Shown here one piece after another: positions 57,174 to 64,000 of a stretch of DNA of 64,000 bases. Source of the DNA: Frateuria terrea (GTDB lineage Bacteria; Pseudomonadota; Gammaproteobacteria; Xanthomonadales; Rhodanobacteraceae); contig NZ_FOXL01000006.1 of the NCBI RefSeq assembly GCF_900115705.1, positions 248,001 through 312,000 on the forward strand, in the 5' to 3' direction. How positions within the stretch are numbered: the stretch's first letter is position 1; each line of letters begins with the position of its first letter. The position numbers and the translations under genes are program-made. Below the pieces are notes generated by a model. It searched no databases, had not been told where the DNA came from, and worked only from the letters and a program-made list of their open reading frames with translations.

Positions 57174-60100
57174 CTAGGGCAGCCACTTCACGCCACGGCT
57201 AGCGTAGTCAAGGATGACATTCATCACTTGATCGCATTTTTCGTTAAACACGGTCCGGTCGTAGCTCTCGGGCAATCTTGCATCCAGCACGGTAACTACC
57301 GCACTACGCACGACCAGTTGGCTCTGGCGATCCTTGAACCAGTCCTGCACCAGCACCCTGGGGCTCTCGTCCAGCAACCGGTGCAGCAGGTGACGGGCCG
57401 CCAGCTTCACCTTCTGCGTCTCGTCCTTAGTCAGGTCGTCCTTGCATAGCAGGTCGAACAGTTCAAGCTCGTCTTCGGAGAGACCTTCCTCGACATTGCG
57501 GCGGGCCTCGGCCTTCAGTTCGCGGGTAAAGCGAAGCAGCTCTTCGAAGTACTGCTCGTTGGACGAGCCGCCGGCGTTGTAGCGGTCGATGATCGCCTGG
57601 AAACGGTGGGCAAAATCCGTCCGCGTCGCGTTGGCCTTCATCATCTGCGCCAGCTTCTGGCTGATGAAGGCACGCAGGTCGGCGATCTCGATGTTCTTGT
57701 ATTGGGTGGCGGCGTATTCCTCGCGCAACTTGTCGATGTCGATCTTGCTCAGGTCCCAGACCTTGCCCTTCTGCACGATCTGGTAGGCAGGGCTGCCGGG
57801 CTCCGCCTGCCAGCTGCCCGACTGCCGGCTCACCACCACGCTTTGATCCAGCAACTCGCCGATGCGGCGGCTCACCGCGTCGATGTCCGCCTCGCCGACC
57901 AGGCTGTCGATCACGCCACGCAGGTATTGGAATGCGGCGACCTGCCGCGTCACCGGGCGTCCGAGCACCTCGGGCTTGCACGCCTCGTAGAGCGCGCTGA
58001 GGCTGTTCTCGTAGACATTGAATGACCGGCGCCAGTCGTCGCTACCGAGCAGCGTGTCGGCGAAGCGCTTGAACTGGCCCAGCTTGTCGAACACCTCGCC
58101 CAAGCCGAGCACCGCGCCAATCTCCACGCCGCGTTCGGTGCAGAACGTCGTGGCCTGCGCCACCGCGTCGTCCAGCAACTCGAACAGGCGCGCCTTGTCC
58201 TGCACCGGCGGTGTCTCGTCGTCGTCACCCTGGGCATAGTCACGCAGGGCGCGCTTCATATTGCGGAACACGTTGTAGTAATCGACGATTTCGCCGTTGC
58301 GCTTGGGCACGCCTCCGATGGTCCAGCTCGTCACGCGGTTGGCGCGGGCGATGGTCTGCATCAGGGTGTGGTCCTTCATCGGCTTGTCCAGGTACAGCGT
58401 GGACGCCGTCGGCGCATCGAAGCCGGTCAGCCACATGGCGCAGACGAACACCAGCTGCAGCGGGTCGGCCGGGTCCTTGAAGTTGTATTCGATGTCGTGG
58501 CCGTGCGCATCGAGCCGGTTCATGCGCTCCCGATGCGGCTTGATGTCCAGCTTCTGCTCGGCGAATTTCTTCTCCTCGCCCGCCTCCTCGCTGACGATCA
58601 CCGCCATCTCGACCGCGCGCATGTACTCCAGGCGTTTCTTCTTGCGCGCCTTGTCCAGCTCGTCGGAGGCCGCCGCCACCTGCCCGATCAGCGCCTTGAT
58701 CTCGGCCTTCCACAACTGCTGCACCTTGTCGTACATGCGCACGGCGGTGAACTTGTCGACCGAGATGACCATGCCCTTGCCGAGATAACCGCGCGCCGGG
58801 AAGTGGGCCAAGATGTCGCGGGCGATCGCGTCCAGGCGGTCGTCGCGCTTGATCACTTCCATCTCGGTGGAGAAGCGCTTCTCCAGCTTTTCCTGCTGCG
58901 CCTCGTCGAGGTTCTCCTCCTCAAGGATCTCGTAGAACTCCTCGCTCAGATCCTCGTTCTGGATCAACACTTCCGGCACACGCTTCACATAGAACAGCGG
59001 CACCGTGGCGCCATCGTCCATCGACTGCTGGAAGTTGTACTCCGACACGTAGCCGCCGAACCAGGTGGCGGTCTTGCGCTCACGGCCCAGCAGCGGCGTG
59101 CCGGTGAAGGCGAGGTAGTTGGCACGCGGCAGGCCGGCACGCATGTTCTCGGCCAGGTTGGCGTACTGCGTGCGGTGCGCCTCGTCCACGATCACCACGA
59201 TATCGTCGCGATCGGACAGCAGCGGATACGCCGCGCCCCGGGCGAAGCGGAATTTCTGGATCAGCGTGAACACCAGCCGCTTGTTCTGGCCGAGGAATTT
59301 GCGCAGCTCGGCGCTGTTGGCCGGCTGGGCGGATTCGGCCTCGCTCACCGTCTCGGTGGCGAGGAAGTTGCGGTAGATCTGGCCGTCCAGGTCCTCGCGG
59401 TCGGTCACCACCACGAAGGTGAAGTTGCCCGGCACGCGGCGGAAGATCTTCCGCACGTAGAAGATCATCGAGAAGCTCTTGCCCGAGCCCTGGGTGTGCC
59501 AGAACACGCCCAGCTTGCCCTCCAGTTCGCCGCGCCGCTCAAAGCGCTCCAGCGCCCGGTTCACGCCAATGAACTGGTGGTTCTGCGCGATCACTTTCTG
59601 CGTCTGGCGATAGAACAGGATGAAGTTCTCGACGTAGTCCAGCAGGCGCTCGGGCACGAACAGGCCGTCGATAAGCCGCTCCAGGCTGGTGCCGTGCTCG
59701 CGGATCGCCTCGCGGTCGATCTTTTCCTTCTCGTCGTCCGGCCGCAGCCAGGTGAAGAAGTGCTCCCACTCGGCGGTCATGCTGCCCAGCCGCGTCTCCA
59801 GCGCATTGCTCAGCACGCAGAACGCGTTGCAAAGGAACAGCTGCGGAATCTCGGCGCGGTAGGTGACCAGGTTTTCGTTGTAGGCGTTCTTCAACGCCAC
59901 GTTGGAGTTCTTCAGCTCGATGAACACCAGCGGCAGGCCGTTGACGTACAGCAGCACGTCCGGCCGGCGGTAGCCACGCTCGCCGTGGATCCACAACTGC
60001 GCCACGGCGAGGAAGTCGTTGCCCGCCATGTCGGTGAAGTTCATGAGGCGCAGTCGCTCGTGCCGGCGGCGCCCCTGTGCATCGTCGTACTCCACCGCCA

Positions 60101-60404
60101 TGCCGTGGCGCAGCAGGTCGTGGACTTCCTTGTTCGCCATCACTGCGGTCATCGCGCGGCGCGGATCGCACAGGCGCTCCAGCGCCTCGTCGATCACCGC
60201 CTCCGGCACCGTCGGATTCAGGCGGCGAGCGACAGCGCCGAGCCGGTCGCGCAGGATGACCTCCCGCTTGTCGCGGCGGCCGCTGCCGTCGTCGAGATCG
60301 GCCGGGTCCGTGGTGTAGGCGTTCAGCGTCGTCCAGTGCCCCAGCGCCGGCAGCCGCGCCAGCAATGCCCGCTCGATCTGGTCCTCGGTAATCAGGTTGG
60401 GCAT
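57174..60404 (-). CDS. hsdR: Type I restriction endonuclease subunit R
   Basis: 1076 aa: N-terminal nuclease domain with PD (149-150) ... ExK (ELK, 163-165), Walker A in HTQGSGKS (303-310), DEAH box (407-410), later helicase motifs (FTGTPLLG, TGFDAP, QTIARANRV) and a C-terminal HsdR helical part. It translocates and cuts unmethylated DNA as part of R2M2S. AAGGAAAG precedes ATG 60404. Followed upstream by fic, hsdS and hsdM on the same strand. Confidence 0.96.
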   Translation of the reverse strand: MPNLITEDQIERALLARLPALGHWTTLNAYTTDPADLDDGSGRRDKREVILRDRLGAVARRLNPTVPEAVIDEALERLCDPRRAMTAVMANKEVHDLLRHGMAVEYDDAQGRRRHERLRLMNFTDMAGNDFLAVAQLWIHGERGYRRPDVLLYVNGLPLVFIELKNSNVALKNAYNENLVTYRAEIPQLFLCNAFCVLSNALETRLGSMTAEWEHFFTWLRPDDEKEKIDREAIREHGTSLERLIDGLFVPERLLDYVENFILFYRQTQKVIAQNHQFIGVNRALERFERRGELEGKLGVFWHTQGSGKSFSMIFYVRKIFRRVPGNFTFVVVTDREDLDGQIYRNFLATETVSEAESAQPANSAELRKFLGQNKRLVFTLIQKFRFARGAAYPLLSDRDDIVVIVDEAHRTQYANLAENMRAGLPRANYLAFTGTPLLGRERKTATWFGGYVSEYNFQQSMDDGATVPLFYVKRVPEVLIQNEDLSEEFYEILEEENLDEAQQEKLEKRFSTEMEVIKRDDRLDAIARDILAHFPARGYLGKGMVISVDKFTAVRMYDKVQQLWKAEIKALIGQVAAASDELDKARKKKRLEYMRAVEMAVIVSEEAGEEKKFAEQKLDIKPHRERMNRLDAHGHDIEYNFKDPADPLQLVFVCAMWLTGFDAPTASTLYLDKPMKDHTLMQTIARANRVTSWTIGGVPKRNGEIVDYYNVFRNMKRALRDYAQGDDDETPPVQDKARLFELLDDAVAQATTFCTERGVEIGAVLGLGEVFDKLGQFKRFADTLLGSDDWRRSFNVYENSLSALYEACKPEVLGRPVTRQVAAFQYLRGVIDSLVGEADIDAVSRRIGELLDQSVVVSRQSGSWQAEPGSPAYQIVQKGKVWDLSKIDIDKLREEYAATQYKNIEIADLRAFISQKLAQMMKANATRTDFAHRFQAIIDRYNAGGSSNEQYFEELLRFTRELKAEARRNVEEGLSEDELELFDLLCKDDLTKDETQKVKLAARHLLHRLLDESPRVLVQDWFKDRQSQLVVRSAVVTVLDARLPESYDRTVFNEKCDQVMNVILDYASRGVKWLP

Positions 60405-60431
60405 GCGGTGGCTTTCCTTACGCCGCGCGTT

Positions 60432-60459
60432 AGTTAACGGAAATGCGATTACGTTAACT
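60432..60459. promoter_or_regulatory. Palindromic operator candidate between fic and hsdR
   Basis: AGTTAACG (60432-60439) and CGTTAACT (60452-60459) are perfect 8-bp arms around a 12-base spacer; an extra TAACG half-site follows. The region is AT-rich, overlaps the fic stop and lies 28 bases upstream of the hsdR ATG, so it could regulate hsdR or form an attenuating hairpin. Confidence 0.6.
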
Positions 60460-61587
60460 TAAAAAGAGGCTTAGGTAACGCTGGAACTCGTACACCCGGC
60501 CGCGCGCCTGACCCGTCACCTCCACCAGCACGCCCAGCCGTTCGAACTCGGCGATCAACTTGTTGGCGGTCGGCGTGCTCACGCCCAGCGCCTTTTCCAC
60601 GTCGCCGGCCGAGACCACCGGCTGGCGATACAGCAGGTTCAACAGCAACCTGGCGTTGGGTGCGCGCTTGCCCATGCCAAGCAGCGCCGTCTCCACCTCG
60701 GTGCGCAGCGCCAGGATCTGCTGGAACACCTGCCGCCCCTTGGTCGCCGTCTCGGCCACGCCGCGCAGGAAGAAGCGCACCCAATGGATCAGGTCGTTGG
60801 ACACGCGCACCCGGGTCAGCGCGTCGTAGTAGCTGGCGCGGTTGCGCTCGAAGAAGTCCGACAGGTACAGCGAGGGCTTGGCCAGCAGGCCGTGGCTGAT
60901 CAGGTACAGCGGAATCAGCAGGCGGCCGATGCGGCCGTTGCCGTCGCAGAACGGGTGGATGGTCTCGAACTGGTAGTGGCTGATGGCGATGCGCACCAGG
61001 TGCGGCACGGTGATCTGCTCGTTGTGCCAGAAACTCTCCAGATCGCCCATCAGCGCCGGCACCCCGTCCGGGTGCGGCGGCACGAACGCGGCATCGGCCA
61101 GACTGGAGCCGCCGATCCAGTTCTGGCTGCTGCGGAACTCGCCCGGCTGCTTGTGCTCGCCACGCACCCCGCGCATCAGCAGCGCGTGCGCCTGCCGCAG
61201 CAGGCGATTGGACAGCGGCAGGCGATCCAGCGAGGCGATCGCGTCGTTCACCGCCTCGATGTAGTTGTGCACCTCCCGCCAGTCGTCGCGCTTCTCCGGC
61301 TTCACCAACTCTTCGCTGAGCACCGCCTCGCCGATGCCGGTCTGGGTGCCCTCGATGCGGCTGGAGGTCTGCGCCTCCTTCACCACGTGCATGGTGATGA
61401 ACAGGTCGATGTCCGGCACGATCAGCGAGAACGCGTTCAACTCGCCCAGCGCCCGGTTGGCCGACTCCAGCAAGGTGTTGATGCCGGCGTTCTCCCAGCT
61501 CCAGTCGTGGTCCACCGGCACCGGCTCGAAGCTCTTGTACTGGTAGCGGGAGATCCAGCGCCCGGCCTTGAAGGTTTCGAATTTCAT
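60454..61587 (-). CDS. Fic family protein (probable AMP/UMP-transferase)
   Basis: 377 aa. Catalytic Fic motif HPFCDGNGRIGR at residues 211-222 matches HPFx(D/E)GN(G/K)RxxR. An inhibitory motif SxxxEG occurs at residues 75-80 (SSRIEG), N-terminal to the Fic core, i.e. class II self-inhibition. The C-terminus (about 305-377) is a winged helix (VVSAGDVEKALGVSTPTANKLIAEFERLGVL). Fic enzymes add AMP to target proteins. It sits between hsdS and hsdR, so function with or as a guard of the R-M system is plausible. Confidence 0.93.
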   Translation of the reverse strand: MKFETFKAGRWISRYQYKSFEPVPVDHDWSWENAGINTLLESANRALGELNAFSLIVPDIDLFITMHVVKEAQTSSRIEGTQTGIGEAVLSEELVKPEKRDDWREVHNYIEAVNDAIASLDRLPLSNRLLRQAHALLMRGVRGEHKQPGEFRSSQNWIGGSSLADAAFVPPHPDGVPALMGDLESFWHNEQITVPHLVRIAISHYQFETIHPFCDGNGRIGRLLIPLYLISHGLLAKPSLYLSDFFERNRASYYDALTRVRVSNDLIHWVRFFLRGVAETATKGRQVFQQILALRTEVETALLGMGKRAPNARLLLNLLYRQPVVSAGDVEKALGVSTPTANKLIAEFERLGVLVEVTGQARGRVYEFQRYLSLFLS

Positions 61588-61617
61588 GGGGCTGCCCCTT
61601 CCCTCGACATCTCAGCG

Positions 61618-61728
61618 CCGTCATCCCCGCGAAAGCTGGGATCCAGCGTCTTTCCAACATGGCATGCATGCACTGGACGACCGGCATCCGCCGTTGTGAA
61701 GCGCCTCCCGCTTTCGCGGGAATGACGG
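61618..61728. repeat. REP doublet in the hsdS-fic gap
   Basis: Left arm CCGTCATCCCCGCGAAAGCTGGG (61618-61640) and inverted right arm CCCGCTTTCGCGGGAATGACGG (61707-61728) flank 66 bases. The right arm has its own hairpin CCCGC-TTTC-GCGGG. GTCATTCCCGCGAAAGCGGGAATCCA is a common dispersed palindrome in proteobacteria; this looks like a mobile REP pair or decayed MITE. Confidence 0.7.
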
Positions 61729-61753
61729 CAATGGAAATACCTCGCGAAAACCG

Positions 61754-63013
61754 TCATGCCTGCGCCGGCATGCTGGGCGGAAACTGGATGTCGAGCTGGT
61801 CCACGCGCAGTTTGCCGGAGATCAGGCGGGGGAGGAGCAGGTCGCGGGTTTTGGCCAGCACGGCATTCACCCGCTCCAGCTTTTCCATAGACGAAAATAT
61901 GGGTGCCACTCGACGGTCGAACTCGGCAACAAGCGAAGACGGCGGCGTCAGCACTTCGATCCGTTTGAAGGTGCCCTTGGTCAATTCAGGGAAGGTGGCG
62001 CCGCCGCAGAGCGACAGGAAATAGTCTTTGCTCAACTTGAGCCAGTGATAAAGATAGCTGAGCGGATAGCGCTCATTCGGTAGGCAAGCGATGAAACCCT
62101 GATTGGTGCACGCTGGCGTCGTATTGATGCCAATAGCGCCGATGGTCGCGCGGCTCGTCATCATCACCGAATAGGCTGGAAAAAGAGTTGCTGAGCAACT
62201 GGACAGCCCTTCTTCCGTGCACTTCAGGCCCGACTCGCCAAGAAATAGGCCATCGGCAGCCGTGATGTCCGACGGTGTAAACCAATTGATCGTCCCGTCC
62301 TTCCAGTAGCGCGCTGTGTCCTTTGAAGGCGTGGCACCCCCTGTGAACCGGAACGCCTTCGCGACCGGGACACTGGACCAACCTACGGGCTTGCCCTTTT
62401 CAAATTTGGCCTGCCGATATTCCGGAAAGCGGAAGCGAACGAACCATTCGCGGTAGAGCTGCTCGGCCATCCGCTCCAGCAGGGCGATCCGGCGCCGGTT
62501 GTTCTCGATCAGGTCGTCGTAGGCAACGAGGACTGCTGCGATCTCGTCTTGCTCCGCCTTCTCGGGAACGCTGAGAACCAGCTCCTTCGCGACCGTGATG
62601 TTGAAGTGCTGCTGGGCGGCGCCCACAAGATTGCCGGCAACCACGTCTCGACCGAACGTCGAATTGAAAATGGCGCAGAGGAAGTGTGGATTGAGCTCCT
62701 TGCTGGGTCGAACGATCACAAGATCGCTGCAATTCGAGCGCGGTAGCGACTCGGGGACCACGCACGCGACGCCTGGGTAGCCGGTTCGCACGATGGCGAC
62801 ATCGCCCGGCCGCAAAGCCGACTTCCTGATCTTATGGTGGAAAGCCTCATCGATGAACATCAGCTTGTCGAGGCTGATGCGATACGGCCTGACATTGAGG
62901 GAGCGAAGGAACGGTACGCCGGATGGCACATACTGCTGCGCCATCGGACCGACGTAACCCACAGTCACGCGCTCGCACAGGTCCTTCAATTTGACCTTCG
63001 GCCACACGCTCAC
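61754..63013 (-). CDS. hsdS: Type I restriction specificity subunit S
   Basis: 419 aa with two target recognition domains (about 1-150 and 210-360) separated by conserved helices (KAEQDEIAAVLVAYDDLIENNRRRIALLERMAEQLYREWF and the second near SMEKLERVNAVLAKTRDLLLPRLISG). Each TRD reads half of a bipartite site. GTG 63013 overlaps the hsdM TGA (GTGA). The DNA site cannot be inferred by eye. Confidence 0.94.
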   Translation of the reverse strand: MSVWPKVKLKDLCERVTVGYVGPMAQQYVPSGVPFLRSLNVRPYRISLDKLMFIDEAFHHKIRKSALRPGDVAIVRTGYPGVACVVPESLPRSNCSDLVIVRPSKELNPHFLCAIFNSTFGRDVVAGNLVGAAQQHFNITVAKELVLSVPEKAEQDEIAAVLVAYDDLIENNRRRIALLERMAEQLYREWFVRFRFPEYRQAKFEKGKPVGWSSVPVAKAFRFTGGATPSKDTARYWKDGTINWFTPSDITAADGLFLGESGLKCTEEGLSSCSATLFPAYSVMMTSRATIGAIGINTTPACTNQGFIACLPNERYPLSYLYHWLKLSKDYFLSLCGGATFPELTKGTFKRIEVLTPPSSLVAEFDRRVAPIFSSMEKLERVNAVLAKTRDLLLPRLISGKLRVDQLDIQFPPSMPAQA

Positions 63014-64000
63014 GATTCGCCTGCGATCTGCAAAGCGTTGGACTGGATAACAGTCTCCAGGTCTCGGGCGAAAGCGTTGAGATTTGCCAGCTCATCGTTC
63101 ATCGCCAGCAACTCGGCGACAAACTCCTCCTCCGTCTTCCCATCCTCCTCGGTCACCACGCCCACGTAGCGCCCGGGATTGAGCGACCAGTCCTGCTCCT
63201 TCACCTCGGCCAGCGTGGCCAGCTTGCACAGCCCGGTGACATCCTCGTAGGCGGCGCCGGGGAAGCGCTCCTGCAGCCAGCGCACGTGCTCGAACCAGTA
63301 TTCGGCGCGGCGCACTTCGCCGTGCAGGGCTTCCAATGCGGCCTTCAGCGCCTTGGTGTCGCGGTCGATACCGCCGCGCTTGCCCTCGGCCTGCGCCGCC
63401 TCGGTGAGGCGCTTCTCGTGCTGGCGCACGAGGCGGTCCAGCCGCTTGAGGTCGGCATGCAGCGCCTCGAAGAACGGGTCGCAGTGTTCGCGCAGCGCAT
63501 GCTGGGCGGTTGCTGACGGCGATCGAGGCATTGGGATCGGCCTTGGCCTGGTAGGCGGCGAAGCGCTTCTGCAGCGGCTTCAAGGCTGCCCATTCCTCCT
63601 GCATGGTCGACACAGCCTGCCGGCCCTCGGCGTCGTCCAGCACCGCCAGCAGTTGCTCGGCCAGCGGCGCGATGTGGGCATGGCTTTCGGCCAGCGCGGC
63701 GAAGCCGGCGGCGAAGTAGTCGTCCACAGCCTCGATGAATTCGTGGCGGTCGCCCAGGCGCAGCTGGCTGATCAGCGACAGGTTGCGCACCTGCTCGTCG
63801 CTGAACTCGCGATGGGCACGGTCGATCTGGGTGAACACGTTGCGCGCGTCGATGAACAGGATGCGCTCATCCGGCTTGGCCTTGTCGAAGAACCACAGCG
63901 TGGCCGGCAGGGTGACCGTGTAGAACATGTTGGACGGCAGGGTGAGCATGCCGTAGATCAGGTTGGCCTCGATCAGTGCCCGGCGGATGTCCGCCTCGGA
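63010..64000 (-). pseudogene. hsdM: Type I DNA methyltransferase subunit M, partial and frameshifted
   Basis: Sequence from the right edge (ANLIYGMLTLPSNMFYTVTLPATLWFFDKAK...) is the C-terminal part of an N6-adenine methyltransferase M subunit. The frame runs to YQAKADPNASIAVSN near 63510 and then breaks. Homologous sequence continues in the next frame from AQHALREHCDPFFEALHADLKRLDRLV to the stop at 63010. One extra base near 63505-63510 (CAACCGCCC) explains it. The catalytic NPPF/Y part lies beyond the window. Either a genuine inactivation or an assembly error. Confidence 0.85.

What the first reader, a model, noticed from the sequence alone, without database searches (positions are those of the whole stretch)
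57174..64000. Fic enzyme embedded in a type I restriction-modification operon
hsdM-hsdS-fic-hsdR lie on one strand, with fic in the 1.3-kb slot between S and R. The Fic protein has an intact HPFxDGNGRxxR motif and an SxxxEG self-inhibitory motif, so it is a complete switchable AMP-transferase with a DNA-binding-like winged helix at its end. Fic as a built-in partner could act as a safeguard or abortive-infection arm that fires when the restriction system is subverted. Operon placement is seen; the defence role is inferred.
Basis: partly seen in the sequence, partly recalled or inferred. Interest (0 to 1): 0.8.

Follow-up and report, generated by a model that had tools for sequence, protein, structure and literature searches.

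The report
Fic toxin gene inside restriction operon
A gene for a protein-tagging enzyme of a known phage-defence family sits inside a DNA-restriction operon, one example of a recurrent habit in which bacteria tuck back-up defence genes between restriction genes.

Summary

The arrangement recurs. In 80 genomes, 24-25 of 105 SoFic-type genes lie within 6 kb of R-M genes (about 2 expected). In the window's own Fic clade, 28 of 42 scored loci are R-M linked, to type I, III or MmeI-like systems, often with a 4-bp ATGA overlap. The slot before hsdR also holds TIR, PIN, SIR2, RhuM, Schlafen and other genes. So this is one case of the known embedding of effectors in R-M operons. Because closely related Fics pair with unrelated R-M systems, a dedicated Hsd-specific partner is less likely than a modular, self-triggered second-line effector. 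Function is untested.

The parts
57174..60404 (-). hsdR, type I restriction subunit, 1076 aa, open frame
   Evidence: Pfam HSDR_N, SWI2_SNF2, T1RH-like_C; PADLOC REase_I 533.2 bits; NCBIfam TIGR00348 463.4 over cut-off 284.55
60454..61587 (-). fic, SoFic-type class II Fic AMP-transferase, 377 aa, ending 49 bp before the hsdR start
60922..60957 (-). catalytic motif HPFCDGNGRIGR, Fic residues 211-222
   Evidence: motif scan; H211 P212 F213 D215 G216 N217 G218 R219 G221 R222 invariant in a 38-sequence alignment
61348..61365 (-). inhibitory motif SSRIEG, Fic residues 75-80 (pattern [S/T]xxxE[G/N], recalled)
   Evidence: motif scan; S76, I78, E79 invariant, S75 and G80 nearly so
60502..60648 (-). 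C-terminal winged-helix-like domain, Fic residues about 314-362
   Evidence: Pfam HTH_13 27.5 bits vs cut-off 26.1; helices 306-321, 327-334, 338-350 in the model
61588..61753 (-). hsdS-fic gap of 166 bp holding an inverted pair of 21-bp repeats (61619-61639 and 61707-61727)
   Evidence: sequence; 2 matches in the window vs 0.02 expected, up to 3 mismatches; in the whole genome, up to 2 mismatches, these two and one single copy elsewhere
61754..63013 (-). hsdS, type I specificity subunit, 419 aa
   Evidence: Pfam Methylase_S, two stretches; PADLOC Specificity_I 234 bits
63010..64000 (-). hsdM, 3' part, frame-broken at about 63507-63530; the C-terminal piece is the ORF 63010-63531, the 663-aa upstream frame runs from about 65083 outside the window to 63092
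   Evidence: Pfam N6_Mtase; PADLOC MTase_I 553.7 bits; frame change against the HsdM of L006 and L003

Best explanation
The gene is a SoFic-type class II Fic AMP-transferase carried as an embedded accessory defence effector in a type I R-M operon. R-M would be the first line and the Fic enzyme a second, abortive line. At rest its own N-terminal inhibitory helix (SSRIEG) blocks productive ATP use; on phage infection the block is lifted and it puts AMP on an essential host protein, stopping growth. Because closely related Fics sit in unrelated R-M systems, the trigger is probably sensed by Fic itself or is a general sign of infection, not release from a specific Hsd protein; co-transcription and, in many relatives, translational coupling keep it expressed with its R-M host. 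Shown: gene order, motifs, predicted fold, family, recurrence. Inferred: co-transcription, activity, target, trigger, phage defence in this organism.
For: SoFic family and fold. SoFic protects against phage and is toxic (PMC12249575; validation against T5 as cited there and in PMC11514479). R-M neighbours in 24-25 of 105 Fic genes vs about 2 expected. 28 of 42 scored members of the window's clade R-M linked: 16 type I, 9 type III, 3 MmeI-like. ATGA 4-bp overlap with the upstream gene in 15 of 45 R-M-linked vs 2 of 76 unlinked rows. Same Fic clade with HsdR at 66-69% or 21-25% identity. Catalytic motif in 133 of 135 Fics; both exceptions are unlinked. The pre-hsdR slot also holds TIR, PIN, SIR2, RhuM, Schlafen genes.
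Against: No activity, target or phage data for this gene. hsdM next to it is frame-broken, so the host R-M may be dead here. NCBIfam's SoFic equivalog cut-off is not met (151.6 vs 550). In the drawn genomes 80 of 105 SoFic-type genes are not within 6 kb of R-M genes, and in Streptococcus thermophilus SoFic is reported as a lone gene outside defence islands (PMC11514479 passages). Several fic copies in R-M slots are split or fragments, so fic can be lost while R-M genes stay. In the window the overlap with hsdS is absent (166-bp gap).
Confidence: 0.55

Rival explanations
1. PrrC-like guardian: the Hsd complex itself holds Fic inactive, and Fic fires when a phage anti-restriction protein binds or dismantles the complex.
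For: PrrC, embedded in a type IC locus and activated when Stp inhibits EcoprrI, is an established precedent (PMC12707154 passages; PMC3506569 passages). In 13 of 32 type I rows fic lies directly between hsdS and hsdR; ATGA overlap favours matched amounts. A 47-codon AS1-like antitoxin gene does not fit the 49-bp fic-hsdR gap.
Against: Same Fic clade with type III and MmeI-like systems and with HsdR as low as 21% identical; members with no R-M neighbour keep the inhibitory motif too. A specific latch would have to be remade each time.
Confidence: 0.2
2. Pure passenger: a stand-alone SoFic toxin/defence gene that landed in a tolerated slot of horizontally moving R-M cassettes; no functional link.
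For: The slot takes many unrelated genes, including transposases; the R-M label changes often on the Fic tree (28 changes for linked vs unlinked); decayed copies.
Against: The labels 'none', 'type I', 'type III' and 'MmeI-like' each need fewer changes than in any of 500 shuffles (near-copies add to this); ATGA coupling is enriched in R-M-linked copies, also inside the 70%-plus group (12 of 24 vs 1 of 14, p 0.012).
Confidence: 0.17
3. Fic regulates the R-M system: it AMPylates an Hsd subunit, or its winged helix controls the operon, to restrain restriction.
For: Operon position and a C-terminal winged helix. A Fic enzyme with DNA-induced activity is reported (PMC10628234, search listing only).
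Against: Pairs with unrelated R-M enzymes; the SoFic C-terminal domain is reported to act on the enzyme's own toxicity (PMC12249575).
Confidence: 0.06
4. Chance or annotation artefact.
For: None found.
Against: 24-25 of 105 vs about 2 expected; 15 directly upstream of HSDR_N; open frame intact; similar loci in distant groups.
Confidence: 0.02

Closest known systems
SoFic (class II Fic; S. oneidensis SO_4266, E. coli EcSofic)
   Different: Below NCBIfam's SoFic equivalog cut-off. EcSofic is described with a 47-aa downstream antitoxin AS1; here hsdR starts 49 bp after fic. SoFic is described as a single-protein system (PMC12249575); this one is inside an R-M operon.
Genes embedded in defence operons ('guilt-by-embedding', Payne et al. 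2024, preprint; not read, seen as cited in PMC12988326 and PMC11411939)
   Same: A single gene with a known or plausible defence role placed between the genes of a defence system on the same strand; PADLOC's PDC-S04 and PDC-S24 models also hit this Fic domain (71.7 and 67.8 bits)
   Different: The window gene scores as SoFic; whether that preprint lists SoFic in type I operons could not be read here
TgvAB in the V. cholerae VPI-2 type I operon
   Same: Two defence genes embedded in a type I R-M operon and acting by a separate mechanism (PMC11411939 passages)
   Different: TgvAB is a type IV restriction system; this is an AMP-transferase
PrrC-EcoprrI
   Same: Host-toxic effector embedded in a type I locus
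   Different: PrrC is an anticodon nuclease with an ABC NTPase domain, latent in the Hsd complex (PMC3506569 passages); no such domains here
Histophilus somni 2336 HsdR-Abi-HsdS-Fic-HsdM
   Same: Fic annotated inside a type I locus, in a 2011 figure legend (PMC3339403)
   Different: Different gene order; in the passages seen it is not discussed as a system

Membership tests
SoFic / class II Fic | HPFx[D/E]GNGRxxR catalytic motif | tested here: met
   HPFCDGNGRIGR
SoFic / class II Fic | inhibitory [S/T]xxxE[G/N] helix N-terminal to the Fic core | tested here: met
   SSRIEG, residues 75-80; helix 60-78 in the model
SoFic / class II Fic | family model score | tested here: inconclusive
   PADLOC SoFic E 9.1e-118, but NCBIfam NF046030 151.6 bits vs cut-off 550
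SoFic / class II Fic | whole-length fold with C-terminal winged helix | tested here: met
SoFic / class II Fic | AMPylation, toxicity, anti-phage activity, dimerisation | not testable with these tools
   needs bench work
SoFic-AS1 pair | small antitoxin gene just downstream | tested here: inconclusive
Type I R-M operon | hsdR, hsdM and hsdS together | tested here: met
Type I R-M operon | all three subunits with intact frames | tested here: not met
   hsdM frame-broken at 63507-63530; could be an assembly error
R-M-embedded defence gene | gene between R-M genes, same strand, short gaps, recurrent | tested here: met
R-M-embedded defence gene | own anti-viral effect | not testable with these tools
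   needs phage assays
PrrC-type R-M guardian | toxin latched by the Hsd complex and freed by anti-restriction protein | not testable with these tools
   indirect evidence against specific latching: swaps between R-M types
PrrC-type R-M guardian | PrrC/RloC nuclease and ATPase domains | tested here: not met
   Pfam shows Fic_N, Fic and HTH/MarR only

The most novel reading that the evidence does not exclude
The window's Fic clade is a universal plug-in guardian of restriction: one AMP-transferase that senses a sign common to failing type I, type III and MmeI-like restriction (for example DNA ends, nucleotide changes or a phage anti-restriction protein) and shuts the cell down, co-translated with whichever R-M gene lies upstream of it.
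Probability: 0.22. Interest if true: 0.75.

Novelty: new member of a known kind. Interest (0 to 1): 0.4.

Why it matters
SoFic is among the commonest defence genes in a survey of community genomes (PMC10924106 passages), yet its trigger and target are not known (PMC12249575). A Fic clade that travels with three R-M types, often translationally coupled, gives a testable handle on the trigger: if Fic answers to restriction failure, anti-restriction proteins should fire it; if not, R-M is only its vehicle. It also shows the space before hsdR to be a busy slot for effector-like genes, in which Fic was the most frequent find in the 30 loci looked at.

Tried and rejected
Considered and set aside: (1) chance adjacency, by the enrichment; (2) a Fic line co-evolved with one type I system, by the mixed R-M types within one clade and HsdR identities of 21-25% beside Fic identities of 71-77%; (3) loss of the inhibitory motif in R-M-linked copies, which would have pointed to Hsd proteins as antitoxin: the motif is found in every linked copy scanned and in the unlinked ones but for the two whose catalytic motif also failed the pattern; (4) an AS1-like gene after fic: no room. 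The first HMM annotation saw only type I neighbours; Pfam scans then showed type III and MmeI-like ones. The 293-aa gene that overlaps the hsdM start has no hit at E 0.001 in Pfam, PADLOC or NCBIfam.

Limits of the counts; 82 of 398 genomes had a Fic match at 1e-20; 80 were searched because of the handle cap (the two weakest dropped). Of 109 match rows 105 were used: dropped were the rows of those two genomes and two rows that are second pieces of a gene already counted. The R-M hit lists were typed in; second pieces of one gene and most N6_N4_Mtase hits weaker than about 3e-17 were left out, and two lists were cut by the tool, so the expected number (1.76 computed) is slightly low, about 2. 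One weak N6_N4 hit (G002:C70) was kept because it lies near fic; without it the count is 24 of 105, with it 25. The expectation assumes random positions, and many contigs are short, so adjacency is a lower bound. By identity to the window's Fic the linked counts are 3 of 15 (60% or more), 4 of 12 (50-59), 5 of 26 (38-49) and 13 of 52 (28-37): the nearest relatives in this draw are not the most linked; 132 of the 135 Fics (dropped: duplicate L108 and two under 26% identity); the label is an R-M gene on the same strand among the two nearest genes on either side, by home-made HMMs; 7 rows at contig edges are NA; two labels (L020, L038) were set by hand; the tree is a quick one with several long branches. 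Loci were chosen by likeness to the window's Fic. One search tests treat rows as independent, which they are not, and use the first possible start codon. The 30 HSDR_N loci are the best-scoring, not random; 4 gave no usable upstream ORF (in at least one the strand was misjudged by my script), 3 upstream genes were not scanned. Of 1,362 plasmid records with a match I opened four, chosen by hand.
Full report
What is there. The window is G000:C12:248001-312000 of a 3.84-Mb, 16-contig genome. At its right end, on the minus strand, lie hsdM (partly outside), hsdS 61754-63013, fic 60454-61587 and hsdR 57174-60404. Gaps are 166 bp (hsdS-fic) and 49 bp (fic-hsdR); the hsdM C-terminal ORF overlaps hsdS by 4 bp, and a 293-aa gene without hits in Pfam, PADLOC or NCBIfam overlaps the hsdM start by 4 bp. 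This is the only PF02661 (Fic) match at E 0.001 in the genome.

hsdM changes frame at 63507-63530: the HsdM of L006 matches in one frame to its residue 532 and in the next from residue 539. Whether this is a mutation or an assembly error cannot be told here. The hsdS-fic gap holds an inverted pair of 21-bp repeats; at up to 2 mismatches the genome has only one further, single copy, which suggests that the pair came with the cassette. G+C over the operon is 59-67%, against about 70% just downstream but 65-68% upstream, so composition says little.

Does fic sit with R-M elsewhere? A scan of genome contigs with the Fic protein gave 80 loci. With home-made HMMs and Pfam checks the near relatives (70-82% identical, in many groups) sit in three R-M settings: type I (for example L008, L017, L025, L030, L037: hsdS-fic-hsdR), type III (L010, L019, L041, L046: res upstream, mod downstream) and downstream of an MmeI-like gene (L011, L014, L022). 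On a tree of 132 Fic sequences the starred 44-row clade that holds the window's Fic has 16 type I, 9 type III, 3 MmeI-like, 14 unlinked and 2 unscored rows. The three MmeI-like rows form one branch (support 100) and 7 of 9 rows of another subclade are type III, so linkage is inherited for a while; but the type I label needs 22 changes over the whole tree, so it is gained or lost often.

A sample not chosen by neighbours. Of 398 genomes of the window's phylum, 82 have a SoFic-type match at 1e-20. In 80 of these, 25 of 105 Fic matches lie within 6 kb of an HSDR_N, N6_Mtase, Methylase_S or N6_N4_Mtase match (24 without one selectively kept weak hit), against about 2 expected at random positions (limits and the split by identity in Tried and rejected). 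Fifteen lie within 610 bp upstream of HSDR_N on the same strand; they are 30-100% identical to the window's Fic over the matched part, so several Fic lineages use the same slot. The 398 genomes hold 341 HSDR_N matches in 195 genomes, so at least 15 of 341 have such a Fic in front. Against the reading: 80 of 105 Fic genes have no R-M match within 6 kb, and the 60-66% relatives are mostly unlinked.

Coupling. The gene upstream of fic overlaps it by 4 bp (ATGA) in 15 of 45 R-M-linked rows with a measured gap and 2 of 76 unlinked rows (Fisher p 5e-6; among those 70% or more identical 12 of 24 vs 1 of 14, p 0.012; rows not independent). The overlapped gene may be hsdS, a type III res or an MmeI-like gene. 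In the window this overlap is absent: the repeat pair occupies the gap.

What else sits in that slot. In the 30 best-scoring HSDR_N loci, the gene before hsdR is Fic in 5 (L150, L154, L156, L175, and L166 with its frame broken in two), one more has a Fic one gene further up, behind a transposase (L165), and one a weak Fic-like stretch (L159). Other occupants are RhuM (2), TIR, PIN, SIR2, a reverse-transcriptase domain, Schlafen AlbA_2, a YhcG-type nuclease, DUF3226, transposases (2), an HSDR_N-like protein and an alanine racemase; four had no Pfam family over its cut-off; hsdS itself in one. Four loci gave no usable upstream ORF and three upstream genes were not scanned. Four plasmid loci were opened out of 1,362 records with a match: Synechocystis pSYSX has a Fic gene on the strand opposite to, and overlapping, hsdS in a type I locus; Thermus brockianus pTB1 has helicase-Fic-DUF1156; the Rhodoferax and Picosynechococcus ones are not next to annotated R-M genes.

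How it most likely works. The strongest discriminating fact is that Fics of one clade, 71-81% identical to the window's, share operons with HsdR proteins that are 66-69% (L003, L006, L008) or only 21-25% identical (L015, L017, L025, L028, L035, L049) to the window's, and with unrelated R-M types. A PrrC-like latch on a particular Hsd protein is hard to keep under such swapping. I therefore favour an autonomous, auto-inhibited SoFic effector carried by R-M operons as a second, abortive line, with co-expression as the link, at 0.55; a true guardian at 0.2; a mere passenger at 0.17. The step from sequence to phage defence is inference.

Known or new. Effectors in type I loci are known: PrrC (PMC12707154 passages; PMC3506569 passages, which also proposes toxin-R-M coupling in general; the word Fic does not occur in it, Doc is mentioned for another kind of system), TgvAB (PMC11411939 passages) and the 'guilt-by-embedding' survey of Payne et al. 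2024 (not held; seen only as cited). Fic beside type I genes is in print as annotation: Histophilus somni 2336 in a figure legend (PMC3339403) and Corynebacterium diphtheriae VA01 (PMC5379612 passage). My nine literature searches (capped listings, 15 papers opened in part) turned up no paper that treats SoFic in R-M operons as a system; most subscription papers and bioRxiv are not in the library. I file the finding as a new member of a known kind.

Noticed in passing
window 63507-63530: hsdM is frame-broken while hsdS, fic and hsdR are open; the host R-M may be inactive or the assembly wrong.
   Followed up: partly
window 61619-61727: Inverted pair of 21-bp repeats between hsdS and fic, with only one further single copy in the genome; looks like a small repeat element that came with the cassette.
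   Followed up: partly
L002:11080-11961 (would be window 65080-65961, outside the window): 293-aa gene overlapping the hsdM start by 4 bp, no hit in Pfam, PADLOC or NCBIfam; possible further accessory gene of the operon.
   Followed up: partly
L147-L176: The gene just before hsdR is often effector-like (Fic, TIR, PIN, SIR2, RhuM, Schlafen, YhcG, reverse transcriptase): a cargo slot worth a systematic survey.
   Followed up: partly
L007:10352-11404; L150:509-1495; L156:2121-3110: A second Fic family, distant from the window's, also sits next to or in front of hsdR genes.
   Followed up: no
L027:5399-9134: A clade member in a Nitrosomonas MAG lies directly downstream of gyrB; DNA gyrase is a known target of other Fic enzymes (recalled), so the position is curious.
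   Followed up: no
L105 (G101:C87:3211-3408), L103 (G073:C35), L102 (G077:C172), L028, L033: Fic fragments, split copies or internal stops between R-M genes, i.e. fic decays while the R-M genes stay, unless these are assembly errors.
   Followed up: partly
L145 (Thermus brockianus pTB1): Fic between a helicase-related gene and a DUF1156 gene, with DUF499 nearby: another methylase-type system with embedded Fic.
   Followed up: no
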